A stretch of DNA of 64,000 nt, taken from assembly GCF_014243345.1 (NCBI RefSeq), contig NZ_JACLZF010000002.1:620001-684000 (forward strand). The letters run 5' to 3'. Below, in pieces: positions 41,851-58,582 of this stretch. The notes under the pieces were generated by a model. That model saw only the letters and a program-made list of their open reading frames with translations, did not search any database and was not told the DNA's origin. The stretch is from Robiginitalea sp. SC105. Lineage in GTDB: Bacteria > Bacteroidota > Bacteroidia > Flavobacteriales > Flavobacteriaceae. Every line of letters starts with the position of its first letter. Position 1 is the first letter of the stretch. The position numbers and the translations under genes are program-made.

Positions 41851-41880
41851 AAAACCCCCGCCAATTCTGGCGGGGGTTTT
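41851..41880 (-). terminator. perfect 13-bp hairpin terminator
   Basis: AAAACCCCCGCCA, loop ATTC, TGGCGGGGGTTTT, with A- and T-runs on both sides so that it works on both strands. It is the strongest terminator in the window. On the minus strand it follows the tRNA 3' fragment. Confidence 0.85.
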
Positions 41881-42039: not shown

Positions 42040-43035
42040 TTAATCGACTAGAGTAAATTTCCAACTTTCAGCTTCTTTTCTCCAAAGATCGCTATTAAAG
42101 ACTTTATGAAAGGGATTCCTAAGTATTTGAGGTTTATAGCTTTTTTCATGCATCTTTGACCTATTTACCAGATATAAAAAATATTTATCCCCTAAATCCT
42201 TTGCAACCCTTATTTCATTCTTAGACCAATAAAATTTAACATCTTCCTCGTAAGATTTGACTTCAATAAAACGGTTGTTAAAGATAGAATCAATGTCATT
42301 AAAACTAATTAAATCATAACCGGCATCGGTTTCATTTTCAGATACAAGTTGAATTTGCTCGACATTTGGATGTCCACAGAGCCTATTATTTTCGAATTCG
42401 AGTACGAATAATTCAGCCCTTTTTCCCGCTTCTTCTTTTTGTTTTAGCAGATGCTTTAAACGCTTAAGACTTAGTTTAGACTTCCTCCTTTCAATTAAAT
42501 TAAGCCTTTGTATCACTGAGGTGTTTAATAGACTATTGAAAAACTTATTAACCCAGATATGATTCTTTATTCTTGAATCTCTGTAAAAGAAACTAGTTGA
42601 AATCAGGAGATTTCTTATTGAAAAATATTTTATTGAAATTTCATTGTCAAGAACATAATACTGATTTCTTTCCACATTAAATTTCAAACCGTCGTTACTA
42701 AATAACTTAGAAATTGCGCCCTCATTGAATAATCTCTGAAAAAAGATGTTGTAGAAGTGGTCTGTTTCGAAGTAGAGTTTTTTGTTGTGAAGATTAGGAT
42801 CAAAATGATTGAAATCTAAACTTATTCTTTCATTCTTGATTTTAACGAAAGACACGAAATCTAAAAGCTCCAGAATTCCTTCTATTGAATTGTAGATGGA
42901 AAACCTATTGGATTTAACGTACTTCTTTATTTTGTTTATGGCCTGGGATTCAGACAAAGGCAAAACCTCGAATAGGATAAAAGTTATTTCATCCTTTGTG
43001 CCAAGTAATCTATGCTTTAGAAGATCTTCTAACAT
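42040..43035 (-). CDS. DUF3883-like PD-(D/E)XK nuclease
   Basis: The protein has 331 residues. The C-terminal third matches DUF3883-type nuclease folds: E208 (AGKRAELFVLEFE), D241 (DAGYDLISFND) and E258-x-K260 (NRFIEVKSYEED), followed by YWSKNEIRVAKDLGDKYFLY. The first 190 residues are unassigned and may bind DNA or partners. It is the last gene of a five-gene operon and overlaps the SNF2 helicase gene by 26 bp. Probable effector nuclease of an R-M-like system; inference only. Confidence 0.75.
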   Translation of the reverse strand: MLEDLLKHRLLGTKDEITFILFEVLPLSESQAINKIKKYVKSNRFSIYNSIEGILELLDFVSFVKIKNERISLDFNHFDPNLHNKKLYFETDHFYNIFFQRLFNEGAISKLFSNDGLKFNVERNQYYVLDNEISIKYFSIRNLLISTSFFYRDSRIKNHIWVNKFFNSLLNTSVIQRLNLIERRKSKLSLKRLKHLLKQKEEAGKRAELFVLEFENNRLCGHPNVEQIQLVSENETDAGYDLISFNDIDSIFNNRFIEVKSYEEDVKFYWSKNEIRVAKDLGDKYFLYLVNRSKMHEKSYKPQILRNPFHKVFNSDLWRKEAESWKFTLVD

Positions 43036-45004
43036 AGTCTCTAATTATAGCCCTAATGTCATTATCTAAGTCTATATCCCTACTAAGATTTTCAGAAATT
43101 AAAGGAATTTCTTGGCTCTCAATTAATTCAAGCATCCTTCTTTCTTTGTCCATTAATCTTCTGTGAATTGTTTCATCAATTGAGTCTTCTGATAGGATAT
43201 AGTGGTAGTGTGTCAACTGATTTTTTTCTAAGCCAACGCGATGAATTCGGTCTTTGGATTGAATAAAATTTGAGGCATTAAAAGTTCGTTCAAAATAGAC
43301 GGCATGGTGACAAGCATGGTGAAGAGATATTGATTCTGCTACCGCAAAAGGATTTGCAATAATTACTCTGAACGGACAATCTTCTTCATGAAATTCCCTT
43401 ATGATTTTTTCCCTTGTAACAATTTCTTCGGGCATATCATCCCTTTCAACGGGAACCTCACCAATTAATAACCTAGAATCAATTCCAGAAGAATTGAGAT
43501 ATTGCTGAAGTTGTTTAATCGACAATATAAAAGTGCCCCAAAGGATGACCTTCTGTCCATCTGAAACTAAATCTGATACCAATGACTTAATAGTCTCAAA
43601 TTTAGCAGGAATAGTTTCATGGCTATGGTAGTTCAATATTTTGTCAAGAACATGATTATCATCTAGGTATAGGTTGTTACTTAATCCCTGTTCTTGATAG
43701 TAGTCCTCTAACGATTGTCTTAATAAATCGGGATTAGTGGCACACTGCATAAGTCTAACAAATCGTGCCTTCTTTAAATTTGTTGTGGCTGATAAGGCAT
43801 CTTGATTATCCTCAAAGTATGAGATATATCGATCTTCCAAGAAATCATAAATTTCTCTTTGAACTTTACTCATTTTTACTTTGATGGGATCGTGATTGAC
43901 GATAGGCGGAAGGCCTAAATCATTTTTCTTTATCCTAATAAAGAACGGAGAAATACTTTCAACGAGTTCGTCAACTCTATCGTCAAATCTATTATTTGAC
44001 ATATCCTGTAATTGAAAAACATTGAAGTTTATGATATTTTTATTTGGCCATATAAACTCATACAGATTATAAATATCCTCGTATCCGTTCGGTACAGGTG
44101 TTCCTGTCAAAACAACCTTAGACTTTACACTTGGTAATTTTGAAAGCGATAGAACAGCAGGAGCCCATGTGCTATCGGGATTGGTGCTTTTTATTTTATG
44201 TGCTTCATCCAATACTATCATCACATGGTTGGATGGTTTTTTTAAGAAAAATTGAAGACCTTTAAGATTATATTGGACACTTTGATAAGACATTAAGGAC
44301 AATTCAGCGGTCTGCTCAGGAGGTTCGATTGAAAAGAGGAAATCATTTCTTTCTTCGGGACTTACGCCTCCGGATAAACGTTTTGACGATACTTTTTTTC
44401 CAAAACATTCTTCATACTCGTTTTCCCAAGGACCAAAAGAGCTCAAGGGTCCTATAATTAATAACCTATTGACAAAATCTGGATGATCTTCCGGTAAGTT
44501 GCTTAAGTATGCATAAGCTCCGTATACCACGGAGGTCTTCCCTGCTCCAGGCACAGAAAAATTACAGGCGTTCTTTGCAAAAGCTAAATGGAAAGCCGCT
44601 AATAGTTGCTTATCGTATAGTGTTCTATTAGTTAAATTCCTTTCCAGTGATTCTTTGAATTCTTTGAATTCATTAGGATCAACTTCATTATTCCAAATAC
44701 ACCTAGCTTTTTGGCTGAATATTTCGAAATCTTTGCGTCGCTTAAAATAGGAAGCCAATATCTTCTTAATTCTCTCTGATTCCTGATATTCAATCTTATA
44801 TTTTTCTAACGCATTATGAATGGAGATTAAAAGTTCTTCCTTTTCGACATTTCTGATCTCAAGTAGGACAGCAGAATCATTAAATTCGGCATCCATGTAA
44901 CTTTCAAAATAGGCCTTGGCCCTTCTGTTCTTTCCTATTACGCCTGAGCTATCTACAAGTAAGAAGTAAGTCTCACTTTGATTTATGTCAATTATAATAC
45001 TCAC
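43010..45004 (-). CDS. SNF2-type helicase/translocase
   Basis: The protein has 664 residues. Walker A at 151-157 (VPGAGKT), DEAH at 266-269 (IVLDEAHKIKS), motif III VVLTGTPVPNGYEDIYNLYE (~297), and helicase C with NPFAVAESISLHHACH and KDRIHRVGLEKNQLTHYHY (~590-610). The N-terminal ~130 residues are extra. DNA translocase of the SNF2 (superfamily 2) class, as used in several defence systems. It overlaps the ParB-like gene by 4 bp (ATGA) and the nuclease gene by 26 bp, so it is translated with them. Confidence 0.85.
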   Translation of the reverse strand: MSIIIDINQSETYFLLVDSSGVIGKNRRAKAYFESYMDAEFNDSAVLLEIRNVEKEELLISIHNALEKYKIEYQESERIKKILASYFKRRKDFEIFSQKARCIWNNEVDPNEFKEFKESLERNLTNRTLYDKQLLAAFHLAFAKNACNFSVPGAGKTSVVYGAYAYLSNLPEDHPDFVNRLLIIGPLSSFGPWENEYEECFGKKVSSKRLSGGVSPEERNDFLFSIEPPEQTAELSLMSYQSVQYNLKGLQFFLKKPSNHVMIVLDEAHKIKSTNPDSTWAPAVLSLSKLPSVKSKVVLTGTPVPNGYEDIYNLYEFIWPNKNIINFNVFQLQDMSNNRFDDRVDELVESISPFFIRIKKNDLGLPPIVNHDPIKVKMSKVQREIYDFLEDRYISYFEDNQDALSATTNLKKARFVRLMQCATNPDLLRQSLEDYYQEQGLSNNLYLDDNHVLDKILNYHSHETIPAKFETIKSLVSDLVSDGQKVILWGTFILSIKQLQQYLNSSGIDSRLLIGEVPVERDDMPEEIVTREKIIREFHEEDCPFRVIIANPFAVAESISLHHACHHAVYFERTFNASNFIQSKDRIHRVGLEKNQLTHYHYILSEDSIDETIHRRLMDKERRMLELIESQEIPLISENLSRDIDLDNDIRAIIRDYVRRSSKA

Positions 45005-46320
45005 TTACTGTGTTTATCGTGTTTTAGAATTATACGCTTGAATTCTTCGGAAAGCTTTCTTATTTCATTCACCATTGTGTACACATCATCGTCTTCTAAG
45101 AAGGATTTGGATTTTGTATTAATTGAGTCTAGTTTGTCTTTCGCACTTTCTAAGAGCTCAAGTGGTCTGTCTCTGTTATTTTTATTTTCTAGGGCACTTT
45201 TAGATCGCCCCATATTTCTTTTCAGGACACTGTCTGCCCTATTTGCCCAGGCGACATCTCTTCCTTTCAAAAGAATTTCTAAGCTCTCGGATGGATGATC
45301 TTTCCTTATCTCATCTATTGAGGGCTCAGATTGGTTGATTTCTTCTATCTCATCAAAGTGCTTATCTCGAAACTTTTCCCAAATTTTCTCATTGCTGAAA
45401 AAACTACCTTTTTTACTAGTGCGGCCAATAAATCTGTAGTCTTTTGAATCTCCGCTATCTGCCGATTTGCTACTATTATAGATTCCACGGATATAGTCGA
45501 AATAGATCATTTTTAGATCGTTTAAGTCTGTTTCATCGTATTTCCATTGAACCATTTTCGACTTACCCCCTTCATATCTTTTCAAATAGCCATTAAGATC
45601 AACAAATGCACCTTCAGTCTTATCCAAACGCGTATATATTCCTCCGTATCCAAGTTGGTCTTGTTCAAGATATTCATTCATTAAATCCATTATGGACAGG
45701 TATTCTTTGATCTTAGATTCTGATTCCCCCATCATTTTTCCTATTTCTTTCGAAGAAAATCCTAATTCAATCAAATCTTGACATTTGAGATATTTTTCAA
45801 TTGCATTGTAGTCGACTTTTGCATCTTCACCCATTTGGTAGGTTGTCTCAAGTCTCATTATTTCCTTTGGATCATCGTCCAAAACTTCGTCGAGAACGAC
45901 ACCTAGAAAATATACTGGGCTTTCCTTTTTCTTTTCTGCCACTCTACGGAGTATCATTGACCTTCTGTTTCCGTCAATAATTACTCCATCCTTAGTAACT
46001 ATACCATATTCATTTTGTCCTTGGTCAAATATGCTTTTTTCCGTTGCCTTATTTGCAGGAATATTTGATCTCCACAGAAAGTCTTCAATAATGGCCGCTC
46101 CTTCTTCGGTGGAAGCATCAATTTCTTCACCGGTTTCTTGGGCATGTGATTTGACCAGACTTGCTATTCTACCATTCCATTGATTATAAATTAAGTAATC
46201 AAGATCGATTTCGTAGACAGGCAATTTTTGCTTTTTACCCTTATAATAAATATCCTTGTGGGAATAAGGCTTTTTCTTCTTTAACCCTTCAAAATATTTT
46301 ATCCTAGCTTCTTTCTCCAT
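45001..46320 (-). CDS. ParB/sulfiredoxin-like domain protein
   Basis: The protein has 439 residues. ParB-type nucleotide-binding core: VTKDGVIIDGNRRSMILRRV (~108-127, with GNRRS) and an HTH-like region (FSSKEIGKMMGESESKIKEY, ~188-207). The C-terminal 200 residues are charged (SLEILLKGRDVAWANRADSV, FKRIILKHDK). ParB-fold proteins bind CTP or DNA and occur in phage-defence operons. Overlaps the helicase gene by 4 bp and lies 2 bp after the methyltransferase gene; it may give sequence recognition. Confidence 0.8.
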   Translation of the reverse strand: MEKEARIKYFEGLKKKKPYSHKDIYYKGKKQKLPVYEIDLDYLIYNQWNGRIASLVKSHAQETGEEIDASTEEGAAIIEDFLWRSNIPANKATEKSIFDQGQNEYGIVTKDGVIIDGNRRSMILRRVAEKKKESPVYFLGVVLDEVLDDDPKEIMRLETTYQMGEDAKVDYNAIEKYLKCQDLIELGFSSKEIGKMMGESESKIKEYLSIMDLMNEYLEQDQLGYGGIYTRLDKTEGAFVDLNGYLKRYEGGKSKMVQWKYDETDLNDLKMIYFDYIRGIYNSSKSADSGDSKDYRFIGRTSKKGSFFSNEKIWEKFRDKHFDEIEEINQSEPSIDEIRKDHPSESLEILLKGRDVAWANRADSVLKRNMGRSKSALENKNNRDRPLELLESAKDKLDSINTKSKSFLEDDDVYTMVNEIRKLSEEFKRIILKHDKHSK

Positions 46321-46322
46321 GA

Positions 46323-48038
46323 CTATTTTTTATTTGCAACAGAGGTTATTTTATTTATTGTGTATAATGCCATTATTTGTTTCTTAGGAACAATCTCTTT
46401 GTTATTGAAAACTATTGAATCTCCTTGATCGTAAAATGGATTTTCGAACTCAAATTCATCTATGAGCTCAGCAACTTCCTCGATCAGTGAGCTGGGGTCA
46501 AGGTATTGCTCTATTTGTTGCTGTAATTCGTGCATTCTTTGCAATTCACTAGCAGAGGCAATCTTATTTGTGAATCCATTATTTACGATTTGAATAAATT
46601 CTTCACCTCCATTAAAGTCTTTAATGATCGGCTCTATTTCCTTGTAGAAACCATCGGCTATATTTCTACATGGAAATCCTTCGCCATTTCCATATTGAAC
46701 TGAAGTTATCCAGCCTTTACTTTGCTTGCCACTTAAAATGTCATAATTGGATAAGGTTACCGTTATATTTCCATATTTGAATGGATGTCGCCTGAACCTT
46801 GCTCCTGGCTTCTTCTTAGGAGGATGGTCAAAGGTCCTTGCCTCATATGTATTGAGATTCCTTACACCCTTCAACTTTGGTTTTGTGGCTACAATTGGCG
46901 TTGAGATTTCTTGCAATCCCAATTGCTTTAGTACTGTTTTGGCCAATGCCCCACTAACAGTGGGACATACGGCATTTCCAACAAGTCTGCACTTTGAATA
47001 TTCACTGTCCCCAAGGAATTGATAAGTTATGGGAAAGCTCATTAGACAGGCCATTTCGCGAACCGTTGGAATCCGAAATTCACCATCTCCTTTTCGTCGA
47101 TATTCAGAACGGTATATCAATGCTTCTCTGGAGGAGCCAATTTTTGTTGCTGTTACGGTCCTGCTCGGTTTGTTAATTTCTTCCGGAAAAGACATTCGGC
47201 CCATATAAGGATGATTCCTTTTCATGAAGAGTGAACTATTCCATTGGGTCTTATATAGCCCTGAATCATAGAAATGATCAGTAATCCTTTGAAGGGGTAT
47301 ATTTATTTCAGGGTATAAAGGATCTCGAATCCTTCTCGAACTTTTCTTAACGTTTGGTCTGGGGAGTCCCCGAAGTACTGATTTTAGTGTTTTTGAAGGT
47401 AGGAGGTTTCCTTTTTCGCTAATTTTTTGAGAATGTGTTTTTGGTGGTACTATCAATTTGCCTTTTGATACAATTTCGCCTACTATAGCCCTTTTCCTTG
47501 ATTGAGGAGAACCAAAGTGTGCTGAGTTAATCATTGTACTATTTCCCTCGATACTAATTGCAATATCGCTTGGAAGCAGATTTTGATTCAGTGCCCATTC
47601 GGATAAATTCAAATCCTCAAAGGAATAGGATTTTGGTAAGTACTTTAGAGTATTGGTGACATTTTCCATGAACCAAGCTTTTAACTTGGATCGTTCCTGA
47701 AATTTCTTAACTGCCACAATCCTTAAAAACGTCTCGGTCAATCTTAAACCCAATGACTTATCTGCCTTCCCTGAACGATTGGAGTTGGAAAAGCTTACAC
47801 ATGGTGGGCTACCAACTATCACATCAGAATTTGGAATTTCATTGATCAGCTCTATGGAATCCCAGTAGTCGAGAATATCCCGAGGAGGATCATTTAAATC
47901 GAAATTATGATTAAAGGTGCGGACGGCAGGAATCCATTTATCAACACCCCTTAAAATTGTAAACCCTTGCTGCCTGAAGCCCTCTGAAAACCCTCCAGCA
48001 CCACAGAAAAAATCTACAACGGTTAGCTTATTGATCAT
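46323..48038 (-). CDS. DNA (cytosine-5) methyltransferase with C-terminal extension
   Basis: The protein has 571 residues. Motif I VVDFFCGAGGFSEGF (~7-21), motif IV GSPPCVSFSN with catalytic C80, motif VI MENV (124-127), motif VIII QSRKR (179-183), TRD ~190-290, motif IX RTVTA (293-297), motif X GNAVCP (354-359). The usual PPCQ is PPCV here. Residues ~371-571 extend beyond the usual end and are unassigned (KGWITSVQYGNGEGFPCRNI). Methylates a C in a site of unknown sequence. Overlaps the Vsr-like gene by 11 bp. Confidence 0.9.
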   Translation of the reverse strand: MINKLTVVDFFCGAGGFSEGFRQQGFTILRGVDKWIPAVRTFNHNFDLNDPPRDILDYWDSIELINEIPNSDVIVGSPPCVSFSNSNRSGKADKSLGLRLTETFLRIVAVKKFQERSKLKAWFMENVTNTLKYLPKSYSFEDLNLSEWALNQNLLPSDIAISIEGNSTMINSAHFGSPQSRKRAIVGEIVSKGKLIVPPKTHSQKISEKGNLLPSKTLKSVLRGLPRPNVKKSSRRIRDPLYPEINIPLQRITDHFYDSGLYKTQWNSSLFMKRNHPYMGRMSFPEEINKPSRTVTATKIGSSREALIYRSEYRRKGDGEFRIPTVREMACLMSFPITYQFLGDSEYSKCRLVGNAVCPTVSGALAKTVLKQLGLQEISTPIVATKPKLKGVRNLNTYEARTFDHPPKKKPGARFRRHPFKYGNITVTLSNYDILSGKQSKGWITSVQYGNGEGFPCRNIADGFYKEIEPIIKDFNGGEEFIQIVNNGFTNKIASASELQRMHELQQQIEQYLDPSSLIEEVAELIDEFEFENPFYDQGDSIVFNNKEIVPKKQIMALYTINKITSVANKK

Positions 48039-48471
48039 AAAGTTTATTAGTTACTCTGTTTAGGCATCGGTCTAATTGATTCATGATTTCGCACTCCCAT
48101 ATCGTTAGGGTCCTCCAACCTAGATCCTCTAACTCCTTTATTTTACGTTTATCCCTAGTGACGTTTTTTTCAAATTTTTCTTTCCAAAAGGATGTATTTT
48201 TTCTGGGAAGGTCCAATCTGCATTTGGGACATCTATGCCAATAACAACCATTCACAAATATGGCAATTTTCTTACAAGGGAATGCAATATCTGGCTTTCC
48301 TGGAGCCTTTCCCCATTGAATACGATATCCTCGCGTTCCATTATTCCAAAGTGCTTTTCGGAGTAGGAGCTCGGGTTTGGTATCCTTAGCTTTAATTGCA
48401 CTCATCCTCCTGCTTACCATTTCATCTTCTGGAACTGGCGCTCTTCCATCCCTTATATATAACTTACCCAT
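48028..48471 (-). CDS. vsr: Vsr-like very short patch repair/nicking endonuclease
   Basis: The protein has 147 residues. Family hallmarks: MSAIKAKDTKPELLLRKALW (~23), GKPDIAFPCKKIAIFVNGCY (~61) and the zinc-site cysteines/histidine WHRCPKC (~82). Vsr nicks T:G mismatches 5' to T at methylation sites, or acts as the endonuclease of a methylase system. First gene of the five-gene operon, overlapping the methyltransferase gene by 11 bp, so it probably shares that enzyme's site. Confidence 0.88.
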   Translation of the reverse strand: MGKLYIRDGRAPVPEDEMVSRRMSAIKAKDTKPELLLRKALWNNGTRGYRIQWGKAPGKPDIAFPCKKIAIFVNGCYWHRCPKCRLDLPRKNTSFWKEKFEKNVTRDKRKIKELEDLGWRTLTIWECEIMNQLDRCLNRVTNKLYDQ

Positions 48472-48570: not shown

Positions 48571-49818
48571 CTAGTCTATTTCTAATAGCTCTAAAACACG
48601 TTTGCCAATTTCTGGATCTAATTCATCACTTTCTGTTTTGAACACGGAAACGAAGCCCATTTTACATTGGTGATTCACCCTGGTTATACTCTCAGTTACT
48701 TCAAAAAAGTCGTCGGTTCGATACGGGTTGAATGATTTTTCAACATGCTTTCCTGGGTATAGCAGAAGGGCTTTATCCGCATTCCAAAATCGACAATACG
48801 CATACATTTGACGAAGGTCTGAAACTGAGGGCGTTCCGTTATGAGGTTGCTTCCATTTCGTATCAATAATGAAGGTCTTTCCCCCTTTTCGGATTACGAT
48901 ATCTGGTTTCAAATAATTGTACCTCCAAAAGGGTTTTGATTCCTGCCCATTAACTTTAATTCCAGTTCCTCTTGTATCCCTATGTAAACTCTTAAGGATA
49001 TATTCCTCCCAAAGTTGATTCATGTCAAAAAGCAAGGACAGCATTCGTTCTTGACCGTGGGAAATATCCGGAGAATGATTTTTTATGATAAGTATCGCCA
49101 ATTGAAGCGCATTTTCATAGGCCCGTGTTTTTCGATTTAAGGTGATACTTTCAAGCTTTGACACGGAAATGGACCTTCTTTCAATTTCGGGAAAGGAGAA
49201 TAGAATGCGTTTGCAAACATCGCTCAACCTTGAGCCCATTGAGAATTGATCAACGATATCCAATGCCTTAAGAAGGATTTGATGCAACAAGTGTTCGGGA
49301 TCATATACCTCATGAGTAGTGTAAAATCGTTCTTTATGTATTAGGTTACGTTGCAAATGACCTGCAAATTCTAACTTGCCCCTGAGTGCTTTTTGATTCG
49401 CTGTACGCTTACGATATTTCTTCACGAACCCTTTGCGAATTAGATCTTCCAACTCTCCTAAGAACATCTCAAAATAAACTTCCAGTAGGTTAAGATGCTG
49501 CTTATTGACATGAGCTGGTCCAGCTGATTGTGCCTTGAGTTTTCCACAGGATTGAAGCATCTTTAATAGCACGCCTTTCCATTTCCTATCTGGATCATTC
49601 TTGTCTGCTTTCGGATGTATCTCAATGCTCAGTCCATCTACCTGGATGACCCCAACGTACTGTTTGAACTTGAGGCCTTTGGCAATGGGTTCGAAATACT
49701 TTCCATTATGGAATTCATTTAATCGAAGCAGGGCTTCCAAATGTGAATACTTGAAGCCATTTTCTCCTATGAGAAGTCTCTGGTGTTCAAATACGGATAT
49801 TTCCTTTAGTGACCTCAA
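48571..49818 (-). CDS. mcrC: McrC, 5-methylcytosine restriction nuclease subunit
   Basis: The protein has 415 residues. Conserved McrC signature LLFDMNQLWEEYI (~262-274) and PD-(D/E)XK nuclease active site PDIVIRKGGKTFIIDTKWK with D306, D319 and K321. It forms the nuclease of the McrBC complex with McrB, which cleaves DNA with modified cytosines. The ATG follows the McrB stop directly (49818 and 49819), showing coupled translation. The length is within the family's usual range. Confidence 0.92.
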   Translation of the reverse strand: MRSLKEISVFEHQRLLIGENGFKYSHLEALLRLNEFHNGKYFEPIAKGLKFKQYVGVIQVDGLSIEIHPKADKNDPDRKWKGVLLKMLQSCGKLKAQSAGPAHVNKQHLNLLEVYFEMFLGELEDLIRKGFVKKYRKRTANQKALRGKLEFAGHLQRNLIHKERFYTTHEVYDPEHLLHQILLKALDIVDQFSMGSRLSDVCKRILFSFPEIERRSISVSKLESITLNRKTRAYENALQLAILIIKNHSPDISHGQERMLSLLFDMNQLWEEYILKSLHRDTRGTGIKVNGQESKPFWRYNYLKPDIVIRKGGKTFIIDTKWKQPHNGTPSVSDLRQMYAYCRFWNADKALLLYPGKHVEKSFNPYRTDDFFEVTESITRVNHQCKMGFVSVFKTESDELDPEIGKRVLELLEID

Positions 49819-52323
49819 TTAAGCTTCTTCAGACGTATTGAACAATTTTTTTAGGGCTGGAATGATTGTGTTCTCATTTATCGGTAGAAGCCTGTAGGAA
49901 GGCTTTCTTAAATCATCTGAATTGGGATATTCCATATGTGCAAATTGACTATTCTCATTCGAATCCAACGCTACGAATCCCTCCCCTAAGACCAGTCCGA
50001 TCTTCCCATAATCCCCATAGAAGTATTCTTGAAGAAGGGGTATTATTTTATTCTCAAATACTTCAACAAGTCCTTTTGGAGTGGTAACCTCCATAAAATA
50101 GGAATGACCTATGGTATGATCTCGGTCAATAAGCAATTCAATGCGTTCGTTGATCGTTCGAAGAAGTTTTCCTAGGTGTATCCCATTGATCTCTTCTGTT
50201 TGGTCTAGCAAATCGGGATCGGGCATCATCTCGACAAAGGAAAAACGCCTGCGAAGGGCTGTGTCCAAGGCTTCAACACTGCGATCTGCCGTGTTCATAG
50301 TGCCAATGATATATAAATCATTTGGGACCGAGAATTTATCCTTGGAATAGACTAATTCGACCTCTATTTCATTGATATTGCCTTTACGTTTATCGGGTTC
50401 TAGTAGGGTAATCAACTCGCCAAAAATGGAGGATACGTTACCTCGATTAATCTCATCTATGATCAATACTTTTGGTTGATCAGCTTTCTTAGTTGATTCC
50501 CTTTTTTCCTTAACATAGTGTAATAAGGACCTATAGAGGCTTTCGTAGCCCAACAAATATTTGTCCCATTTTGTTGGAAGCTTCTTGTACAAGACCTCCC
50601 TGCCGGATTGTGAAAAGTCCTCATCCTGAATTTCGCCATCGAAATAGGCATTCATGATCTCATCTATAAAATCCCTAGAAAGGTCCACGACGCCAGAATC
50701 CCTTTGAATCCTCAGGAAATTATCGGTAACACTTACGATCTTGTATTTATCATTTCTCCCAAAAGTGTCGTTGATTTGAAAAATAGATGAGTTTGTGCAA
50801 AATTCCTTGAAGATTCCGGGTATGATCTTATAGGCAATCTGATCATTTTCAGTAATGGGCTTGATGCCTTCGATGAAATCCTCATAGCTCATACTTTGAT
50901 GGAAAGTCGTAAAAAGTATCCTTCCCTCTGCCACTTTTTCCGCATAATGCATCATGACCTTTTCGCGAGATAATTCTTCGACATTAATTCCCAAGATCTG
51001 AAGTGCAAGATTTATTGAATTAAATGTCTTTCCAGTCCCAGGAGGGCCATATAGGATCGTGTTTAAGGTTTTGTCCATGGATTCAAGTCTAACTTTTTCA
51101 TTGGGTTCATTTTCTGTGGGATTGGCATCTAATTCTTTTGTTTCCCGCTCCTCATTGTCTTTACTCCAGAGGTTATCTAAAACAATGTAAAGTATATTTT
51201 GGGCAAGTAATAGTTTCTTTGGATCGACCTCACTTAAGTCCTTGGGAATAAATTCATCATGAAGTTCCAACAATTCCTTATCTGTGATTACATATTGATC
51301 CGTAAAATCCTTAAGTAGGGATAGGTAGTGTTCATACTTATTTCCCGGCTTTTTGGGCCTAACACCTATTAAAGAACAGTATTTACGATAATACGAATCC
51401 TTATAAATACCATAATTATTAGGATCATTGAATGCCCACAATACGGAAAGGAAACGCTCGTCCTGTTGCGCAACTTTCCATTTAGGATGCCATTTTACAA
51501 GTAGTTCATCCCCTTTGATCTTCGATTGCTTGATGCGTTCATTCAGAGGTACTTCCTTGTCGAAGATCAGTTTGAAATGATCCCAGGCCTCTTCTGGATG
51601 TTTTCGTGCCAAATTAATGAAGGAAGTAGCCTGTTGAGAAATTAAATTATCCAATTTGAGTTGCTCCAGGGCCTGTGAAAAGTCATTATCCTGTAAACTC
51701 CATGTTTCCCTAAACCTTTTGGCCAATTCCCATTTATACCATTCTTTGGAATTTCCGGTATCTCGAAGGTATTCTTTATAAACCGCAATGAGTTTCGCTT
51801 GAGGTGGTAACTGCGTATAATTTATGAACTCCTTTCGTGTAGTGGAGTCAAAAATAACATCAAATAAAAAAGGTAAATGCTTGCCACGATGGACTACTTT
51901 TCTGGCAGATTCTAATTCCTTTTCGACTGAATCAATAACCAACGGCATTAAAATGTCGTTGACTTTTGGCCAATCCGAGATCGGGCAATATACTAGTTCA
52001 CCTTTGCCATCCTTGAATTGGGTACTTCCGTGAGTGATCTCTTTGGGAAGTACACTCGCTGGTATGTCGGTACCCAAATAAAACCGTAGATAGACCTCAT
52101 CCTTGTCAATGTAGAATCCTCCGATGTATTTCATTCCTAAAATTATCCCGAGGCGTTCTTTGGAACTGTCCGATCTAAGTGTAAGAGCTATCCTTTCATC
52201 TTCTCGTGAAAGTTTTATTCCTTCAAGAAGTCTTTTACATGCATTTAGGGCATGATCCCATTGCTGTGGTGTTAATCGGGCAAGCCAGGGATAACCAAGT
52301 TCACTAGAAGTAAGGTCAATCAT
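49819..52323 (-). CDS. mcrB: McrB-type AAA+ GTPase
   Basis: The protein has 834 residues. Walker A GPPGTGKT (426-433), Walker B IIDEINRGN (621-629), and the McrB-specific GTMNTADRS (674-682). The N-terminal ~400 residues contain recognition domains (CPISDWPKVNDILMPLVI, WHPKWKVAQQDERFLSVLWA) of unassigned type, not the E. coli DUF3578 form as far as I can see. It drives DNA translocation and activates McrC. It is the middle gene of a set preceded by another nuclease-like gene (52407-53444). Confidence 0.92.
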   Translation of the reverse strand: MIDLTSSELGYPWLARLTPQQWDHALNACKRLLEGIKLSREDERIALTLRSDSSKERLGIILGMKYIGGFYIDKDEVYLRFYLGTDIPASVLPKEITHGSTQFKDGKGELVYCPISDWPKVNDILMPLVIDSVEKELESARKVVHRGKHLPFLFDVIFDSTTRKEFINYTQLPPQAKLIAVYKEYLRDTGNSKEWYKWELAKRFRETWSLQDNDFSQALEQLKLDNLISQQATSFINLARKHPEEAWDHFKLIFDKEVPLNERIKQSKIKGDELLVKWHPKWKVAQQDERFLSVLWAFNDPNNYGIYKDSYYRKYCSLIGVRPKKPGNKYEHYLSLLKDFTDQYVITDKELLELHDEFIPKDLSEVDPKKLLLAQNILYIVLDNLWSKDNEERETKELDANPTENEPNEKVRLESMDKTLNTILYGPPGTGKTFNSINLALQILGINVEELSREKVMMHYAEKVAEGRILFTTFHQSMSYEDFIEGIKPITENDQIAYKIIPGIFKEFCTNSSIFQINDTFGRNDKYKIVSVTDNFLRIQRDSGVVDLSRDFIDEIMNAYFDGEIQDEDFSQSGREVLYKKLPTKWDKYLLGYESLYRSLLHYVKEKRESTKKADQPKVLIIDEINRGNVSSIFGELITLLEPDKRKGNINEIEVELVYSKDKFSVPNDLYIIGTMNTADRSVEALDTALRRRFSFVEMMPDPDLLDQTEEINGIHLGKLLRTINERIELLIDRDHTIGHSYFMEVTTPKGLVEVFENKIIPLLQEYFYGDYGKIGLVLGEGFVALDSNENSQFAHMEYPNSDDLRKPSYRLLPINENTIIPALKKLFNTSEEA

Positions 52324-52406
52324 TTAGTGTGTGAATTCTTATGGGATATGATTCAAAAAATACTAAGAAAATGGAAAACCAATATTCGAAAATAATCTCT
52401 TCTAGG

Positions 52407-53444
52407 CTAAGAACCGGATAAATCATTTATCTCCTTTTCGATGACCGAATATTTATCCCTTACATCCTCCGCCATGTAAAAAGCCAATAGATCTGCTGAA
52501 GTGAGCGTCTTTTCTTTTAGGAGCTTCTCCATGTATTTCTGGTTGAAATCCATTAGTAAAAAGGATTTCTCAAGCTGCTGTAATATCTTCTCGTTGGTCT
52601 TGATATTGGATTCTACGAGCTTACGAATGGATTTAAACTCATCAATTGTGTGAATGATTCGTTTTATAATCACAAGTAGTAAATCCAAATCCAAGTCGGG
52701 GGTGGAGGCATTTACAGCAATGTCTCGAGCCAGGTTATAGGCAATCACCAAATTGCTGTAATCCCCCCGCTGTACATCAATCACGCTAATGAAACCTATA
52801 GAAGGAATAAAGCCCACATTTTCTGTAAAATCCAATATCGACTTATCTACTAAAGAGCGATCAAAGACCATTATGGAAACCTTGGATTCCCTGTTCGCTT
52901 GTGTTTCGATTAGTTGGGACCATGCCGTATCCATTTTTCGAGTGAACACGTCCTTATCTGCAATATCACCCAACTTGATACTCTTATCAAACTTGCATTC
53001 GATCCCAATGCGTAGGTCTTGGGTGCCGTCGATATGGACCAGGATATCCCCAGTCTTATTTCTTGGCAGGGCTCCGGCGTCGCCTCCCGTCAGAAAGGCA
53101 TCATCCTTGATCTTTTTTTGATCGAAGTAATCGTTCAGGAATGCCGCCACATCCTCTTCAGCCGCTACTCCCTTGATCGTGCTTTTGTAGAAAAGTTCCT
53201 GTTTGAGGTCAAAGATCTGCTTGAGGCTTTCTAGTTCAACACCCAGCTCGCTTTGCGTCTTGGCTAGGAAGGCAGAAAGGCGATCCTCCATCAGTGCAAG
53301 GACCCCTATATAAAAGGCCTTTAGGAAAACCTCCTGATAATCTTCCTTCTTTACTTTTTTGTCAAAGAATTCGAAAACCAGTTCGTTGGAGATCGTAATG
53401 TTCTTTAACTCGAGCTGTTTTTTTTGTTGATTCAGTTTGATCAT
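52407..53444 (-). CDS. PD-(D/E)XK-like protein associated with McrBC
   Basis: The protein has 345 residues. Helical N-terminus (~1-90), a nuclease-like region with E96/E97 (KGVAAEEDVAAFL), D133 (NKTGDILVHI) and E149-C-K151 (GIECKFDKSI), and a long helical C-terminus (VIIKRIIHTIDEFKSIRKLV, EKILQQLEKSFLLMDFNQKY). I do not recognise a named family. It lies 83 bp upstream of mcrB on the same strand and may be a third component of the system. Its promoter should lie between 53445 and 53724. Confidence 0.7.
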   Translation of the reverse strand: MIKLNQQKKQLELKNITISNELVFEFFDKKVKKEDYQEVFLKAFYIGVLALMEDRLSAFLAKTQSELGVELESLKQIFDLKQELFYKSTIKGVAAEEDVAAFLNDYFDQKKIKDDAFLTGGDAGALPRNKTGDILVHIDGTQDLRIGIECKFDKSIKLGDIADKDVFTRKMDTAWSQLIETQANRESKVSIMVFDRSLVDKSILDFTENVGFIPSIGFISVIDVQRGDYSNLVIAYNLARDIAVNASTPDLDLDLLLVIIKRIIHTIDEFKSIRKLVESNIKTNEKILQQLEKSFLLMDFNQKYMEKLLKEKTLTSADLLAFYMAEDVRDKYSVIEKEINDLSGS

Positions 53445-53724
53445 GTGGTCATTAAGATGTAAAGTTCGGCTATTGCGGCCTAATGCGAATTGAGCAGGTT
53501 TCCGAAAAATATAGGTGTAAGATTTAATTTACAAGGAGATTTGAACATAGTTATCATTTATTTTTAGATAAGAAATAATATATTTATAGGGCATCCGGAA
53601 CGCTTTTAGCGTACCAACCGAGCAAAGAAGCCACGGTGGTTTAGCATGCGGACGATCGTCAAAAAAATGATCTCATGAATTTCGTTCTGCTTTCTAGATG
53701 CGTTAACCTTAAACGCATAACGCA
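53445..53724. other. intergenic promoter region, no gene seen
   Basis: It holds the divergent starts of the McrBC set (minus) and the small gene at 53725 (plus). Repeat-like CGTTAACCTTAAACGCATAA at 53701-53720 lies just before the plus-strand start. No ORF or RNA gene seen. Confidence 0.4.
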
Positions 53725-54172: not shown

Positions 54173-54832
54173 TTATTTGATGTAATACCATCGATATCCT
54201 CCGGAATGATCGCGTTCGCCTCGGCACGCCCTTGCAATGCAGGTCTTGCTCAGTCCTGTTGCCCGGCTTGCCTCGGCAACAGATCGGTGGCTGGCTACCA
54301 AAAGTCCTTCCATTGTAAGCTGGATCACGGATTTCTTCCGCTGATCGCTTGAAATAGGGTAGGAGGTATACTCGGAATAACTCCAAAAATATCCACTGCA
54401 GCTGCGGTTATACCCCAGACAGGCGTTGCTGATGGTCCTGGTACATGATCCCACTGCCTTTGCAGCCTCCTCGAGCGATTTAAAGTTCCCTAAAGGCCTT
54501 CCTGTTTCCGGGCAGTACTGGTAGATGGTTTTGGCAAATCCTCCTCCCTGATCGCGGTTGTAGCCCTTTTTCTGGGAGTCGTAGTGCTCGATATAGTATC
54601 GTTCCTTCTCAGCCAGTTCATCCAGGTTACCTGATGAATCGATCACCTCCCAGGTGAAGGCATCGGGACCATAGGTCCCGATAGCCTCCTGGAAGATGCC
54701 TCCTTTTCCCTGAGATGCCTTCTGCAGGTGATCTTGCTTGCGGGCTTCCAAGGTGGAGGTGGTTGCACCGATATAAACCTCACCGGTTATCCGGTTCATC
54801 GCTTTGTAGAGAATCCCGTTGATCTGGCTCAT
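54173..54832 (-). CDS. GIY-YIG endonuclease with NUMOD-type repeats
   Basis: The protein has 219 residues from ATG 54832 (MSQINGILYKAMNRITGEVY). The GIY-YIG core is GILYKAMN ... VYIGATTSTLEARKQDHLQK, with RYYIEHYDSQKKGYNRDQGG (E) and N later. Two C-terminal NUMOD-like HTH repeats (LGNFKSLEEAAKAVGSCTRT; LVASHRSVAEASRATGLSKT) bind DNA, as in homing endonucleases. The gene overlaps the 3' end of the primase/helicase gene by 53 bp on the same strand; an upstream in-frame ATG at 54904 would increase this overlap. Possibly a homing or mobile-element nuclease. Confidence 0.82.
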   Translation of the reverse strand: MSQINGILYKAMNRITGEVYIGATTSTLEARKQDHLQKASQGKGGIFQEAIGTYGPDAFTWEVIDSSGNLDELAEKERYYIEHYDSQKKGYNRDQGGGFAKTIYQYCPETGRPLGNFKSLEEAAKAVGSCTRTISNACLGYNRSCSGYFWSYSEYTSYPISSDQRKKSVIQLTMEGLLVASHRSVAEASRATGLSKTCIARACRGERDHSGGYRWYYIK

Positions 54833-56252
54833 CCTGACCACTGTTTTCAGTGTTTTTGTCAGAAATGGTGAAGAAATATCCTCCACCAGAAGATGCCGGA
54901 TCATATTGGTAACCCAATATCCGTGCGTACGCCCTCAATTTCATCCCAAAGGACTTATTGGAGAACTGCTTTTTGCTGAAGCCATATTCGGCCCGGAACT
55001 GGTCTTCAAGCTTACGTTTATCCATCCGGGTCCCTAGCACCAACTCCCGCTGCATGAAATCCACAAATTCTGGTGAAGTTTCAGCTGCCAGTTGATTTTG
55101 CTGAAGGAACTTATTGGATACTGCCAGCAACCCGTATTTCAGGTATTCGTGCGCACAGTAAATCATAAATCCGTAGAATCGGTTCCACTCCTGATCATCC
55201 CATCCCGAAAAGAATGGGTTTCCGAATTCATGTTCGGGTTTGTGGCTCAGTCCGTAGTGTGGCGCCAGTTCAAAAAACCAGGACCGGTCCCTGCCAGAGT
55301 TCCCTTCAACTCCCCGTATGGGATAGTTGCTGGTAACCAGAACCTTAGGAGACCGTTCGTAGGGAATGTAAAACGCGTCCTTGAATTTACGGTTTACGGT
55401 GATTCCTGAGGTGAGCATCGAGAATATGTCCTCTAGGGTAAATTTTCGGCCCACATCATCGAAATTGATGATCCGTGTATCCAACTCAAGGCTGGCATGG
55501 GCAAACGGATCGGAAGTCCGGTAATGCCTTCCATCAATGGATTCCGATTTGCGCATTTCCCCAAGGGCTTTTGCAATCAGTGATTTCCCCGTTCTACCAT
55601 TGGCCACTCCAGGGGTGTAGACTTCATCCTGCAAGATGATCGCTCTGGTAATGCTGGGATCTTTATATCCGCTTAGCATATAACCCAAGGCGGTTCGTAG
55701 AGCTTTATTCCGCTTAGGGTCCCCCCCGGATACATTTTCCAAAAACTTGACAAATTGACCAGGCCTGCTTACCCGCATCACGAATGGTCTTGGCAGGACC
55801 TCGTCCTCCCAGATTAGGTGGGGCAGGTCTTCGTAAGGTACCGGCTCAATTCGCGTTTTGGTAACCGCAACAGCGGTATTCTGGAAATAAAACCAGATTA
55901 CACCTCGGTCATCAGCGGGGGTTAGCTGTGGAATTCGCTTTAACGTACTGAGTTTTCGGCTGGAGGCGTAGGTGGTTATCCCCTTGAGGTATTTCTCCAG
56001 GACCTCCATCTCCCCATTCTCCTCCAGGTAGCTGATAATCAGCCGGTCAACATCATCTTGCGTGATCCTTCTCACGCGATTATTCTTGGTATATACCAGG
56101 CAGGTATTCCCATTGGATAGCTCCATGTTGGCTACCCCCATCATCTCTAACGCCACCTTCAGTTCGTAGTGGCGGATCGTTAGGTTTCCCTTGGCATCCT
56201 TCGCCCAGAAAACCGGTATTTTAGGAGCGTTTGCTCCCTTTACAATCTTCAT
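54780..56252 (-). CDS. SF3/primase-type helicase of a mobile element
   Basis: The protein has 490 residues. Walker A GRTGKSLIAKALGEM (~228), Walker B IINFDDVGRKFTLEDIFSML (~262), and sensor-like KVLVTSNYPIRGVEGNSGRD (~312), followed by RSWFFELAPHYGLSHKPEHE. This is the D5/P4-like superfamily 3 ATPase pattern (primase-helicase C-terminal part, DUF5906 type) used for plasmid or phage replication. The N-terminal ~200 residues lack an obvious primase motif. Upstream of the overlapping GIY-YIG gene. Start ATG 56252. Confidence 0.75.
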   Translation of the reverse strand: MKIVKGANAPKIPVFWAKDAKGNLTIRHYELKVALEMMGVANMELSNGNTCLVYTKNNRVRRITQDDVDRLIISYLEENGEMEVLEKYLKGITTYASSRKLSTLKRIPQLTPADDRGVIWFYFQNTAVAVTKTRIEPVPYEDLPHLIWEDEVLPRPFVMRVSRPGQFVKFLENVSGGDPKRNKALRTALGYMLSGYKDPSITRAIILQDEVYTPGVANGRTGKSLIAKALGEMRKSESIDGRHYRTSDPFAHASLELDTRIINFDDVGRKFTLEDIFSMLTSGITVNRKFKDAFYIPYERSPKVLVTSNYPIRGVEGNSGRDRSWFFELAPHYGLSHKPEHEFGNPFFSGWDDQEWNRFYGFMIYCAHEYLKYGLLAVSNKFLQQNQLAAETSPEFVDFMQRELVLGTRMDKRKLEDQFRAEYGFSKKQFSNKSFGMKLRAYARILGYQYDPASSGGGYFFTISDKNTENSGQDEPDQRDSLQSDEPDNR

Positions 56253-56626
56253 TTTCTTTTTTTTAAGATTGCTTGTCTCTAAGCCCGGGTTGAACCGGGA
56301 TGCCCAAAGCGGGCGTGTAATCCGCAGTCTATCCTGCTGTCGTTAGCTTAAGGGTGGAAAATTTCCCCGGACGGGGACATAACAGTGAAGTGCCAGCCAC
56401 AGGATCGTAATCGCGTAGCCATCTCTAACATTCATACAAATATAAATAAATATATATGCAAAAACAAATATACATTAAAAAAATTAATGGTTAAATCACC
56501 CCTCCCTATCAGATATCTCAGCAAAAGTTGACAAGTTGACAACATTTTTTTGAAATTGACAGGGGGGGGGTAATTCTAACTGTTTACCTGCACAGGGATG
56601 GCAGAAACTGTGGTTTTATTGATCAT
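56253..56626. other. 374-bp intergenic region in the mobile-gene cluster
   Basis: Contains the GTTGACAAGTTGACAA repeat (56527-56542), a G9 run at 56562-56570 and an AT-rich stretch 56430-56510. The small hairpins GGGTTGAACC-type near 56285 (CCCGGGTTGAACCGGG) and CCCGGACGGGG near 56365 may be structured. No ORF seen. Possible replication origin or promoter for the primase gene (minus). Confidence 0.4.
56527..56542 (+). repeat. 16-bp repeat GTTGACAAGTTGACAA, copy 2
   Basis: Same 16 bases as 41944-41959 in inverse orientation, followed by CATTTTTTT as on the plus strand of copy 1 (CATTTTA). Confidence 0.45.
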
Positions 56627-57607: not shown

Positions 57608-57624
57608 AGTTATTGTTTTATAAG

Positions 57625-58473: not shown

Positions 58474-58531
58474 TTTGTTTGATTTTATACGATTAATTGA
58501 TAGAAGTGCTACCGGTTGATAGCAGAAATGA

Positions 58532-58558
58532 AAAAGCCTCCGGATAAGGGAGGCTTTT
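58532..58558 (-). terminator. hairpin terminator
   Basis: AAAAGCCTCC, loop, GGGAGGCTTTT. On the minus strand it lies 25 bp after the stop of the small gene at 58583 and separates it from the Sak4-like gene. Confidence 0.7.
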
Positions 58559-58582
58559 AAGGTTGCTAATGGGTCGGTTGAC

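What the first reader, a model, noticed from the sequence alone, without database searches (positions are those of the whole stretch)
42040..48471. Five-gene Vsr / m5C methyltransferase / ParB-like / SNF2 / DUF3883 operon: candidate undescribed defence system
All five genes overlap or abut (11 bp, 2 bp gap, 4 bp ATGA, 26 bp). They combine a nicking endonuclease family, a DNA modifier, a ParB-fold protein, a translocase and a PD-(D/E)XK nuclease. It shares parts with DISARM class 2 (methylase, SNF2) but lacks DrmA/DrmB/DrmC, and differs from BREX, Dnd/Ssp and Mza systems that I know. A methylation-guided translocating restriction system with ParB as recogniser or switch is a reasonable model.
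Basis: partly seen in the sequence, partly recalled or inferred. Interest (0 to 1): 0.8.

Follow-up and report, generated by a model that had tools for sequence, protein, structure and literature searches.

The report
ParB-SNF2 restriction module with swappable parts
Next to a DNA-marking enzyme, this bacterium carries three coupled genes (a DNA clamp, a DNA motor and a DNA cutter) that recur as a set in many bacteria and probably form an undescribed kind of DNA-restricting defence against viruses and plasmids.

Summary
The five genes are real, intact and tightly coupled. The core is ParB-like + SNF2 + NOV_C/DUF3883 nuclease beside a DNA methyltransferase; Vsr is optional (19 of 80 loci). Around the 80 best SNF2 relatives, from eleven named phyla, ParB lies immediately upstream in 76 (four loci start at SNF2), NOV_C immediately downstream in 74, and a C5 methyltransferase within 6 kb in 72 (eight truncated); 0 of 65 more distant SNF2 genes show this. 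Elsewhere the ParB-SNF2 pair accompanies unrelated methyltransferases (Dam-like, N6/N4, type III Mod) and nucleases (MutH/Sau3AI, BglII, PLD, type III Res). The ParB-like protein is predicted to resemble Spo0J/Noc/KorB. Best reading: a restriction-modification system whose restriction arm is an ATP-driven clamp, motor and nuclease. Restriction, nucleotide use and target site are untested; an accessory role is the main rival. SNF2 fused to DUF3883 in R-M operons was predicted in 2013 (PMC3710099, passages); I found no description of the ParB-containing module. McrBC next door is not conserved with it.

The parts
48028..48471 (-). Vsr-type T:G mismatch nicking endonuclease, 147 aa; optional part
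   Evidence: TIGR00632 120.1 bits above cut-off; D61 and H79 among the residues identical in at least 85% of 21 operon-linked Vsr rows, window included; immediately upstream of M5C in L118-L121, the four nearest SNF2 relatives by tree path
46323..48038 (-). C5-cytosine DNA methyltransferase, 571 aa; residues 6-370 catalytic, about 371-571 extra C-terminal domain
   Evidence: PF00145 111.7 bits over 6-370; PC (P78, C80) and ENV (E125-V127) identical in at least 93% of 41 rows; C-terminal domain found in 42 of 42 M5C, 0 of 30 M5C2; modelled at pLDDT 91.3 with no PDB match at E<=0.001
45001..46320 (-). ParB-family protein, 439 aa: ParB N-domain with DGNRR motif, helix-turn-helix, helical C-terminal part
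   Evidence: AlphaFold2 pLDDT 92.0, pTM 0.87; Foldseek best hits Spo0J 1vz0 E 3.4e-4, Noc 7nfu E 5.2e-4, KorB 8qa8 E 7.5e-4, probability 1.00; motif residues D116-R120 identical in at least 93% of 94 rows
43010..45004 (-). SNF2-family ATPase/translocase, 664 aa
   Evidence: PF00176 76 bits; Walker A G153-x-G-K-T157, DEAH 266-269, motif VI QSKDRIHR identical in at least 93% of 100 rows
42040..43035 (-). NOV_C/DUF3883 PD-(D/E)XK nuclease, 331 aa
   Evidence: PF13020 52.2 bits, cut-off 22.1; D241, E258-V-K260 and E208 identical in at least 93% of 88 rows
41851..41880 (-). terminator-like stem (13 pairs, 8 G-C) about 160 bp past the operon's 3' end
   Evidence: the scan as a whole finds no more such sites than shuffles do (10 against a mean of 10.6), so weak

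Best explanation
It is a restriction-modification system of an undescribed build. The C5 methyltransferase marks the host's own sites; Vsr repairs the T:G mismatches that deamination of 5-methylcytosine leaves there. DNA lacking the mark is attacked by three proteins: the ParB-like protein binds and closes around DNA as a clamp (probably nucleotide-dependent) and recruits the SNF2 ATPase, which tracks along the duplex and brings the NOV_C PD-(D/E)XK nuclease to cut. In this branch the extra C-terminal domain of the methyltransferase probably does what a separate endonuclease-like protein (REx) does in the sister branch: it ties site recognition to the clamp, motor and nuclease. Shown here: gene set, conserved order, correlated divergence, conserved catalytic residues, ParB-like fold, exchange of methyltransferase and nuclease partners, mutual exclusion of REx and the C-terminal domain in the loci examined. 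Inferred: complex formation, restriction, ATP or CTP use, the role of the C-terminal domain, and the target site.
For: ParB immediately 5' of SNF2 in 76 of 80 loci (the other 4 start at or within 225 bp of SNF2), NOV_C 3' in 74 of 80 (two of these with broken frames, L186 and L190), against 0 of 65 control SNF2 genes. A C5 methyltransferase within 6 kb, either strand, in 72 of 80; the other 8 contigs break off within 2.7 kb upstream. Starting from ParB instead: SNF2 next to it in 15 of 16 genomes, a methyltransferase beside it in 16 of 16. SNF2-NOV_C overlap is exactly 26 bp, as in the window, in 38 of 74. Pairwise identities co-vary: SNF2-ParB rho 0.84, SNF2-NOV_C 0.69, SNF2-M5C 0.44 in 33 loci, 0 of 500 permutations as high. 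Catalytic residues kept. Of 14 loci seen without NOV_C (contig ends left out), 10 have another nuclease: MutH/Sau3AI (L187, L189, L195, L027, L097), PLD fused to SNF2 (L097, and just under cut-off L098) or an annotated type III Res (L101-L103, L107). C-terminal domain in 42 of 42 M5C, 0 of 30 M5C2, 0 of 41 REx. Found on plasmids and on IMG/VR and phage contigs.
Against: No restriction, methylation or phage data. The 80 loci are the best matches to the window's SNF2 and include near-duplicates, so they are not independent; the 65 controls come from another collection. In many relatives a complete R-M system (REx, MutH/Sau3AI, BglII or type III Res) already sits beside the module, so it could be an accessory. 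NOV_C is kept beside another endonuclease in type B, L184 and L237, and 4 of 14 loci without NOV_C (L115, L003, L004, L106) show no other recognised nuclease, so the replacement pattern is not clean. One ParB locus lacks SNF2 (L108). No shared palindrome (parS-like) upstream of 79 operons. The ParB sequence profile is not significant against PDB ParB (E 0.64), Foldseek superpositions are loose (rmsd 6-14 A among the six hits at E<=0.001), and the second ParB nucleotide motif is diverged. How unmarked DNA is recognised is unexplained.
Confidence: 0.55

Rival explanations
1. Accessory module: ParB-SNF2-NOV_C does not restrict on its own but acts after or beside a conventional R-M enzyme, for example degrading or holding DNA ends made by the endonuclease, or tuning self-restriction.
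For: It sits beside otherwise complete R-M systems of several unrelated kinds: M5C2 with REx, MutH/Sau3AI, BglII with an N6/N4 methyltransferase in L237, type III Mod-Res in 4 of 13 plasmid loci (annotation; L107 also by NCBIfam). NOV_C is kept beside another endonuclease in type B, L184 and L237.
Against: In the window's operon and in the runs of its nearest relatives (L118-L122) no separate endonuclease of a known family was recognised (not every flanking gene was scanned), so there would be nothing to assist, unless McrBC or an unseen enzyme does it. NOV_C keeps its catalytic residues.
Confidence: 0.22
2. The ParB-like protein is itself an NTP-regulated nickase or nucleotidase effector, as proposed for ParB/Srx proteins in conflict systems, not a clamp.
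For: ParB/Srx-fold domains with nicking or NTPase activity are discussed for conflict systems (passages of PMC5512222 and PMC10853773); the motif IDGNRR resembles the (I/V)DGQQR motif of DUF262 (passage of PMC10952713). The only Pfam match is the sub-threshold ddrB-like ParB domain.
Against: The predicted fold matches Spo0J, Noc and KorB; a nuclease is already present.
Confidence: 0.1
3. In this genome McrBC is the restriction partner of the methyltransferase (a LlaJI-like arrangement, recalled), and the ParB-SNF2-NOV_C genes are a separate neighbour.
For: McrC- and McrB-like genes lie 99 bp upstream on the same strand. The CoCoNuT paper reports McrB-like GTPases associated with DNA methyltransferases (passages of PMC11090510).
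Against: Seeded with the window's McrB and McrC, the scan found an McrB-like gene within 6 kb on the same strand in 1 (L153) of 100 relatives with SNF2, and no McrC, whereas M5C-ParB-SNF2-NOV_C recurs.
Confidence: 0.08
4. Orphan methyltransferase with Vsr plus an unrelated DNA-maintenance or partition cassette; no defence role.
For: PADLOC's VSPR entries are Vsr with a methyltransferase and are said not to be a defence system (passages). ParB proteins usually serve partition; ParA-family genes lie near the module on some plasmids (L098 about 1 kb upstream, L099 and L103 further off).
Against: The module recurs beside many unrelated R-M enzymes and keeps a nuclease. No ParA profile search was made, so absence of ParA elsewhere is not claimed.
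Confidence: 0.05

Closest known systems
SNF2 fused to DUF3883 in R-M operons with HEPN-AAA (Ava_2192 context), predicted in PMC3710099 (passages)
   Same: SNF2 helicase with DUF3883 as a restriction endonuclease domain in R-M operons
   Different: There a fusion protein beside a HEPN-AAA protein; here separate genes with a ParB-family protein
Type I and type III restriction-modification
   Same: Methyltransferase plus ATP-driven translocase plus nuclease
   Different: No HsdS/HsdR or Mod/Res in the window operon; the motor is a separate SNF2 protein and a ParB-like protein is added. In 4 of 13 plasmid loci the ParB-SNF2 pair stands beside an annotated type III system
Type II R-M with Vsr (VSPR entries of PADLOC)
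   Same: C5 methyltransferase with Vsr
   Different: Adds ParB, SNF2 and NOV_C; no recognised type II endonuclease in the window operon
Zorya type I ZorD; DISARM DrmD; Dpd DpdE
   Same: SNF2-family ATPase; best PADLOC matches of the SNF2 protein
   Different: No partner proteins of those systems seen; matches far below NCBIfam cut-offs (ZorD 50.9 of 1500 bits, DrmD 33.8 of 610, DpdE 17.6 of 500)
PD-T4-1 and Tiamat (TmtA)
   Same: PADLOC models with a stretch similar to the NOV_C part of the last gene
   Different: Only that stretch matches (residues 160-311 of 331)
Spo0J/ParB, Noc, KorB
   Same: Fold of N-domain and helix-turn-helix
   Different: Extra helical C-terminal part; partner is SNF2; no shared parS-like site found upstream

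Membership tests
Restriction-modification system (broad sense) | DNA methyltransferase linked to a DNA-cleaving arm | tested here: met
   By gene content only: M5C with PC/ENV motifs and NOV_C with D241/E258/K260 conserved; methyltransferase near the module in 72 of 80 and 16 of 16 loci
Restriction-modification system (broad sense) | Cuts DNA lacking its own mark | not testable with these tools
   needs phage, transformation and in vitro assays
Type II R-M | Separate site-specific endonuclease gene | tested here: not met
   None recognised in the window operon; other loci have MutH/Sau3AI or BglII, and probably REx (sub-threshold)
Type I R-M | HsdR, HsdM, HsdS | tested here: not met
   No such Pfam or NCBIfam hit in the eight genes scanned
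Type III R-M | Mod and Res | tested here: not met
   ResIII matches the SNF2 protein only as a helicase domain (29.4 bits, cut-off 22.5), weaker than SNF2; no Mod
DISARM | DrmA, DrmB, DrmC present | tested here: not met
Zorya | ZorA/ZorB with ZorD | tested here: not met
   ZorD similarity at 50.9 bits against a cut-off of 1500; no ZorA/B in the rows shown
VSPR (PADLOC) | Vsr with C5 methyltransferase | tested here: met
   Vsr and MTase_II models hit adjacent genes; describes two of five genes only
ParB family | ParB N-domain plus helix-turn-helix fold | tested here: met
   Foldseek; the sequence profile alone is not significant (7bnk E 0.64)
ParB family | CTP binding and hydrolysis | tested here: inconclusive
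   GxRR motif kept; second motif diverged (my reading of the alignment)
ParB family | Specific loading site (parS-like) | tested here: inconclusive
   No 6-bp-arm palindrome shared by more than 2 of 79 upstream regions (shuffles reach 3); long inverted repeats (arms of 8 or more) are commoner than in shuffles, 24 against 2-8, but were not shown to be shared; sites elsewhere not searched
McrBC / LlaJI-like | McrB and McrC conserved with the methyltransferase operon | tested here: not met
   McrB-like gene near 1 of 100 relatives, McrC near none

The most novel reading that the evidence does not exclude
ParB-SNF2 is a general restriction platform: a nucleotide-gated DNA sliding clamp plus a chromatin-remodeller-type motor that has been plugged into unrelated methyltransferases (two kinds of C5, Dam-like, N6/N4, type III Mod) and unrelated nucleases (NOV_C, MutH/Sau3AI, BglII, PLD, type III Res), turning simple modification enzymes into ATP-driven restriction machines.
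Probability: 0.4. Interest if true: 0.88.

Novelty: new variant of a known kind. Interest (0 to 1): 0.72.

Why it matters
ParB-type clamps are known (recalled) for chromosome and plasmid partition, occlusion and gene silencing. A conserved ParB-family protein that travels with a SNF2 motor and usually a nuclease beside R-M methyltransferases would give the clamp a job in immunity, explain many 'hypothetical protein, DEAD/DEAH helicase, DUF3883' runs on plasmids and prophages, and add a restriction architecture that current catalogues miss (of 46 ParB homologues none hits an NCBIfam model; in PADLOC two models are hit, by one member each, at E 5e-4). It is directly testable with a 6.4 kb operon.

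Tried and rejected
Five-gene unit: rejected, because Vsr lies within 6 kb in only 19 of 80 relatives, while ParB-SNF2-NOV_C is nearly constant. DISARM, Zorya, BREX, Dpd: rejected on missing partners in the genes scanned. McrBC as part of the system: not conserved. C-terminal domain of M5C as a hidden copy of REx: hhalign probability 0.3, so no sign of homology. Fold of that domain: no PDB match at E<=0.001. parS-like site: none shared upstream. A genome-contig scan with the ParB protein alone confirmed no relative, although relatives exist; the SNF2 profile worked. Related DNA in plasmids (blastn): no match. Flank comparison in nine same-genus genomes: the right flank matches in three of them, only at the riboswitch-like element, and the left flank is repeat-rich, so insertion could not be shown. 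PDB search with NOV_C and REx profiles: nothing useful. Two ParB hits at E about 1e-4 (G287, G291) had no SNF2 near and were left out of the 16. Genes downstream of three type III-linked ParB-SNF2 pairs (L101, L103, L107) have no Pfam match, so no NOV_C there.
Full report
WHAT IS THERE. The SNF2 gene starts with GTG, so the four-base overlap is GTGA. Vsr, C5 methylase, SNF2 and NOV_C (DUF3883) pass curated cut-offs; the ParB-like protein does not by sequence. GC is 0.359 over the operon against 0.448 for the window. McrC- and McrB-like genes follow upstream on the same strand (48571-52323), then a 345-aa protein without library hits. From kinship and equal contig lengths (G360:C1 = 1376305 bases, Leeuwenhoekiella aestuarii; G195:C7 = 565374, Algibacter luteus) the host shares a family with these Flavobacteriaceae; the species is not known to me.

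IS IT CONSERVED? A scan of one genome for each of 84,980 species with a profile of 12 SNF2 proteins (A3) matched 142 stretches, 116 of them relatives, of which the best 80 were kept as loci (L118-L197). I called ORFs and classified them with profiles built from the families. ParB lies within 500 bp 5' of SNF2 on the same strand in 76 of 80 (two of them only as a fragment at the contig end, L129 and L132); in the other four the locus begins at or within 225 bp of SNF2. NOV_C lies within 500 bp 3' in 74 of 80 (broken frames in L186 and L190); one locus ends there (L119); two have NOV_C just beyond a broken or split SNF2 frame (L169, L184); three lack it (L187, L189, L195). As a control, the same profiles on the 67 more distant SNF2 loci (L030-L096; viral contigs, so another collection) gave 65 with a scorable SNF2, of which 0 had ParB or NOV_C adjacent. 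A C5 methyltransferase lies within 6 kb on either strand in 72 of 80; the other eight contigs break off within 2.7 kb upstream of SNF2. The SNF2-NOV_C overlap is exactly 26 bp, as in the window, in 38 of 74. The 80 loci fall in 37 Bacillota, 25 Bacteroidota, 3 Minisyncoccota, 2 each of Omnitrophota, Chloroflexota, Pseudomonadota and Nomuraibacteriota, 1 each of Verrucomicrobiota, Falkowiibacteriota, Campylobacterota and Actinomycetota (eleven named phyla), plus a Saccharibacteria and a 'Deltaproteobacteria' record known by title and one unnamed. Some are near-duplicates, so these are not independent events.

STARTING FROM PARB INSTEAD. In whole genomes the ParB profiles matched 12 of 397 genomes of the family and 8 of 395 of the phylum (two of these, G000 and G251, are in both). 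Leaving out two hits at E about 1e-4 (G287, G291; no SNF2 near), 16 genomes remain. SNF2 is next to ParB in 15 of 16 (L235 only partly, at a contig end; in L237 a 162-aa ORF that is probably the SNF2 N-terminus lies between); the exception (L108) has ParB, an alpha/beta hydrolase and M5C. NOV_C follows in 13 of 14 assessable loci (L115 lacks it). A DNA methyltransferase is beside the module in 16 of 16, on the opposite strand in L236. So the system is found in 2-3% of the genomes sampled.

TWO MAIN BRANCHES. Type A (the window) has M5C of about 570 aa; type B has a shorter methyltransferase (M5C2, about 450 aa) plus REx, a protein of about 310 aa with sub-threshold matches to DpnII and BanI endonucleases, whose catalytic motif I could not identify. 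On a FastTree tree of 98 SNF2 proteins the 41 type A and 41 type B rows, other rows not counted, need one change of label (the root is not inferred and several branches are long). The extra C-terminal domain of M5C was found in 42 of 42 type A methyltransferases, 0 of 30 M5C2 and 0 of 41 REx, so C-terminal domain and REx exclude each other here. It is modelled well (pLDDT 91.3), has no PDB match at E<=0.001 and no profile similarity to REx. Its conserved residues show no nuclease motif to my eye. I read it as an adaptor; this is inference.

OTHER PARTNERS. MutH/Sau3AI-type endonucleases stand near the pair in L187, L189, L195, L184, L027 and on the Priestia plasmid L097; a BglII-family endonuclease with an N6/N4 methyltransferase in L237, and a sub-threshold BglII-like protein in L178; Dam-like D12 methyltransferases in L115, L235 and L236; annotated type III methyltransferase and endonuclease in 4 of 13 plasmid loci read (L101-L103, L107; the L107 endonuclease also by NCBIfam). 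In L097 and L098 SNF2 carries a PLD-like domain (PF13091, 34.4 and 26.4 bits, cut-off 27, so the second is just below). Pfam finds NOV_C in 4 of the 13 plasmid loci (L099, L100, L104, L105), which my own NOV_C profile had missed, so absence by that profile alone is weak; the genes after the pair in L101, L103 and L107 have no Pfam match. ParB is adjacent in 12 of 13 by profile; in L106 an annotated ParB-N gene, without a Pfam match, follows SNF2. In two Enterococcus plasmids a protein of about 870 aa with a sigma-like helix-turn-helix precedes the pair. Of 72,556 plasmid records 77 match the SNF2 protein at E<=1e-15 and 66 the ParB protein at E<=1e-5. Of 50,697 phage records 4 match, among them Streptococcus phage Javan191 with a full type B set. 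Twelve IMG/VR contigs (L018-L029) carry close SNF2 relatives; ParB is adjacent in 11 of 12 and NOV_C in 10 of 12.

CORRELATED DIVERGENCE. In 33 type A loci pairwise identities correlate: SNF2-ParB rho 0.84, SNF2-NOV_C 0.69, ParB-NOV_C 0.62, against 0.39-0.45 with M5C. In 31 type B loci ParB-REx is 0.87, SNF2-REx 0.78, SNF2-ParB 0.76. No permutation of 500 reached any of these; eight near-duplicate loci had been dropped from both sets together. In type A the module holds together more tightly than it holds its methyltransferase, which fits partner exchange.

THE PROTEINS. Window included, NOV_C keeps D241, E258 and K260 (and E208) in at least 93% of 88 rows; SNF2 keeps Walker A, DEAH and motif VI in 100; M5C keeps PC and ENV in 41. 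The ParB-like protein is predicted at pLDDT 92.0 and matches Spo0J (1vz0, E 3.4e-4), Noc (7nfu, 5.2e-4) and KorB (8qa8, 7.5e-4) with probability 1.00. For the six hits at E<=0.001 TM-scores are 0.33-0.57 by target length and 0.16-0.32 by query length and rmsd 6.1-13.7, so the match is partial and loose. By sequence the PDB profile search is not significant (7bnk ParB, E 0.64) but lines up DGxxxDGNRR with a GERR motif and a K-x-D-Y-NPIE-like stretch with R-x-D-L-NPIE. Names of the ParB motifs and their role in CTP binding are recalled.

HOW IT PROBABLY WORKS. Shown: the gene set, its order, the exchange of partners, conserved active sites and the ParB-like fold. Inferred: methylation protects self; ParB loads on DNA and recruits SNF2; SNF2 moves the complex; NOV_C cuts. 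For NOV_C as the cutter: of 14 loci seen without it (contig ends left out), 10 have another nuclease (MutH/Sau3AI, PLD, type III Res). Against a clean rule: L115, L003, L004 and L106 have neither that I recognised, and type B, L184 and L237 have both. Type A has no other recognised endonuclease in its operon, which argues that the module restricts by itself there; not every flanking gene of the relatives was scanned. The main rival is an accessory role beside a conventional R-M enzyme. I put 0.55 on the restriction arm and 0.22 on the accessory role.

KNOWN OR NEW. SNF2 fused to DUF3883 as a 'novel REase domain' in R-M operons was stated in PMC3710099 (passages seen), so that pairing is not new. 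DUF3883 is listed as a presumed type II endonuclease in PMC10609329 (passage). ParB/Srx proteins in conflict systems are discussed as NTP-regulated nucleases or NTPases in PMC5512222, PMC10853773 and PMC12839542 (passages). None of the passages I saw in 13 papers describes a ParB-SNF2-DUF3883 module, and the listings of the full-text searches showed no title or abstract start that does. Three of these listings were capped (25 of 121, 15 of 5,194 and 20 of 508 papers), and the library lacks most subscription journals and holds no bioRxiv collection, so this is not proof. No PADLOC model hits the window's ParB; among 46 homologues two models are hit by one member each at E 5e-4; NCBIfam hits none of 46. 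'VSPR' in PADLOC is Vsr with a methyltransferase (passages of PMC10740426, PMC11973324, PMC12988326). I therefore call it a new variant of restriction-modification, with a real chance of being a broader platform.

Noticed in passing
window 53586-53676 (+): SAM-I/IV riboswitch (RF01725, 56 bits, gathering 41.1) followed by a 138-aa ORF that is no methionine gene that I recognise. In the genus 4 of 10 genomes have one copy each. In G002 and G005 the neighbouring genes look defence-like to my eye. An orphan riboswitch, hotspot marker or attachment site?
   Followed up: partly
window 48571-53444 (-): McrC-like, McrB-like and a 345-aa protein without library hits (its ECKF stretch looks PD-(D/E)XK-like to my eye) directly upstream. 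A 5-methylcytosine-dependent McrBC beside an active C5 methyltransferase would be a self-conflict unless its target differs.
   Followed up: partly
window 54173-58930 (-): Phage- or satellite-like genes: GIY-YIG homing endonuclease, phrog_28855 with weak primase similarity, a phrog_1366 protein with Sak4-like similarity; GC 0.483 for 53.5-59 kb against 0.359 and 0.398 for the two defence stretches.
   Followed up: partly
   Followed up: no
L111 5635-8864: SNF2 gene of a type A operon interrupted by two ORFs that look to my eye like an IS3-type transposase pair.
   Followed up: no
L108 8895-12637: ParB-like gene followed by an alpha/beta hydrolase and M5C, no SNF2 or NOV_C found.
   Followed up: no
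L115 6303-11286 (-): Dam-like methyltransferase, SNF2, ParB and an MTA/SAH-nucleosidase-like (PNP_UDP_1) protein in a row.
   Followed up: partly
L003 9275-15012 and L004 9390-15065: Enterococcus plasmids: protein of about 870 aa with a sigma-like helix-turn-helix before ParB and SNF2; an annotated protein of the same kind follows Dcm and Vsr in L098.
   Followed up: partly
L099, L100, L104: Alphaproteobacterial plasmids: a conserved protein of 280-319 aa directly before ParB-SNF2-DUF3883, no Pfam or NCBIfam hit in the two of three that were scanned.
   Followed up: partly
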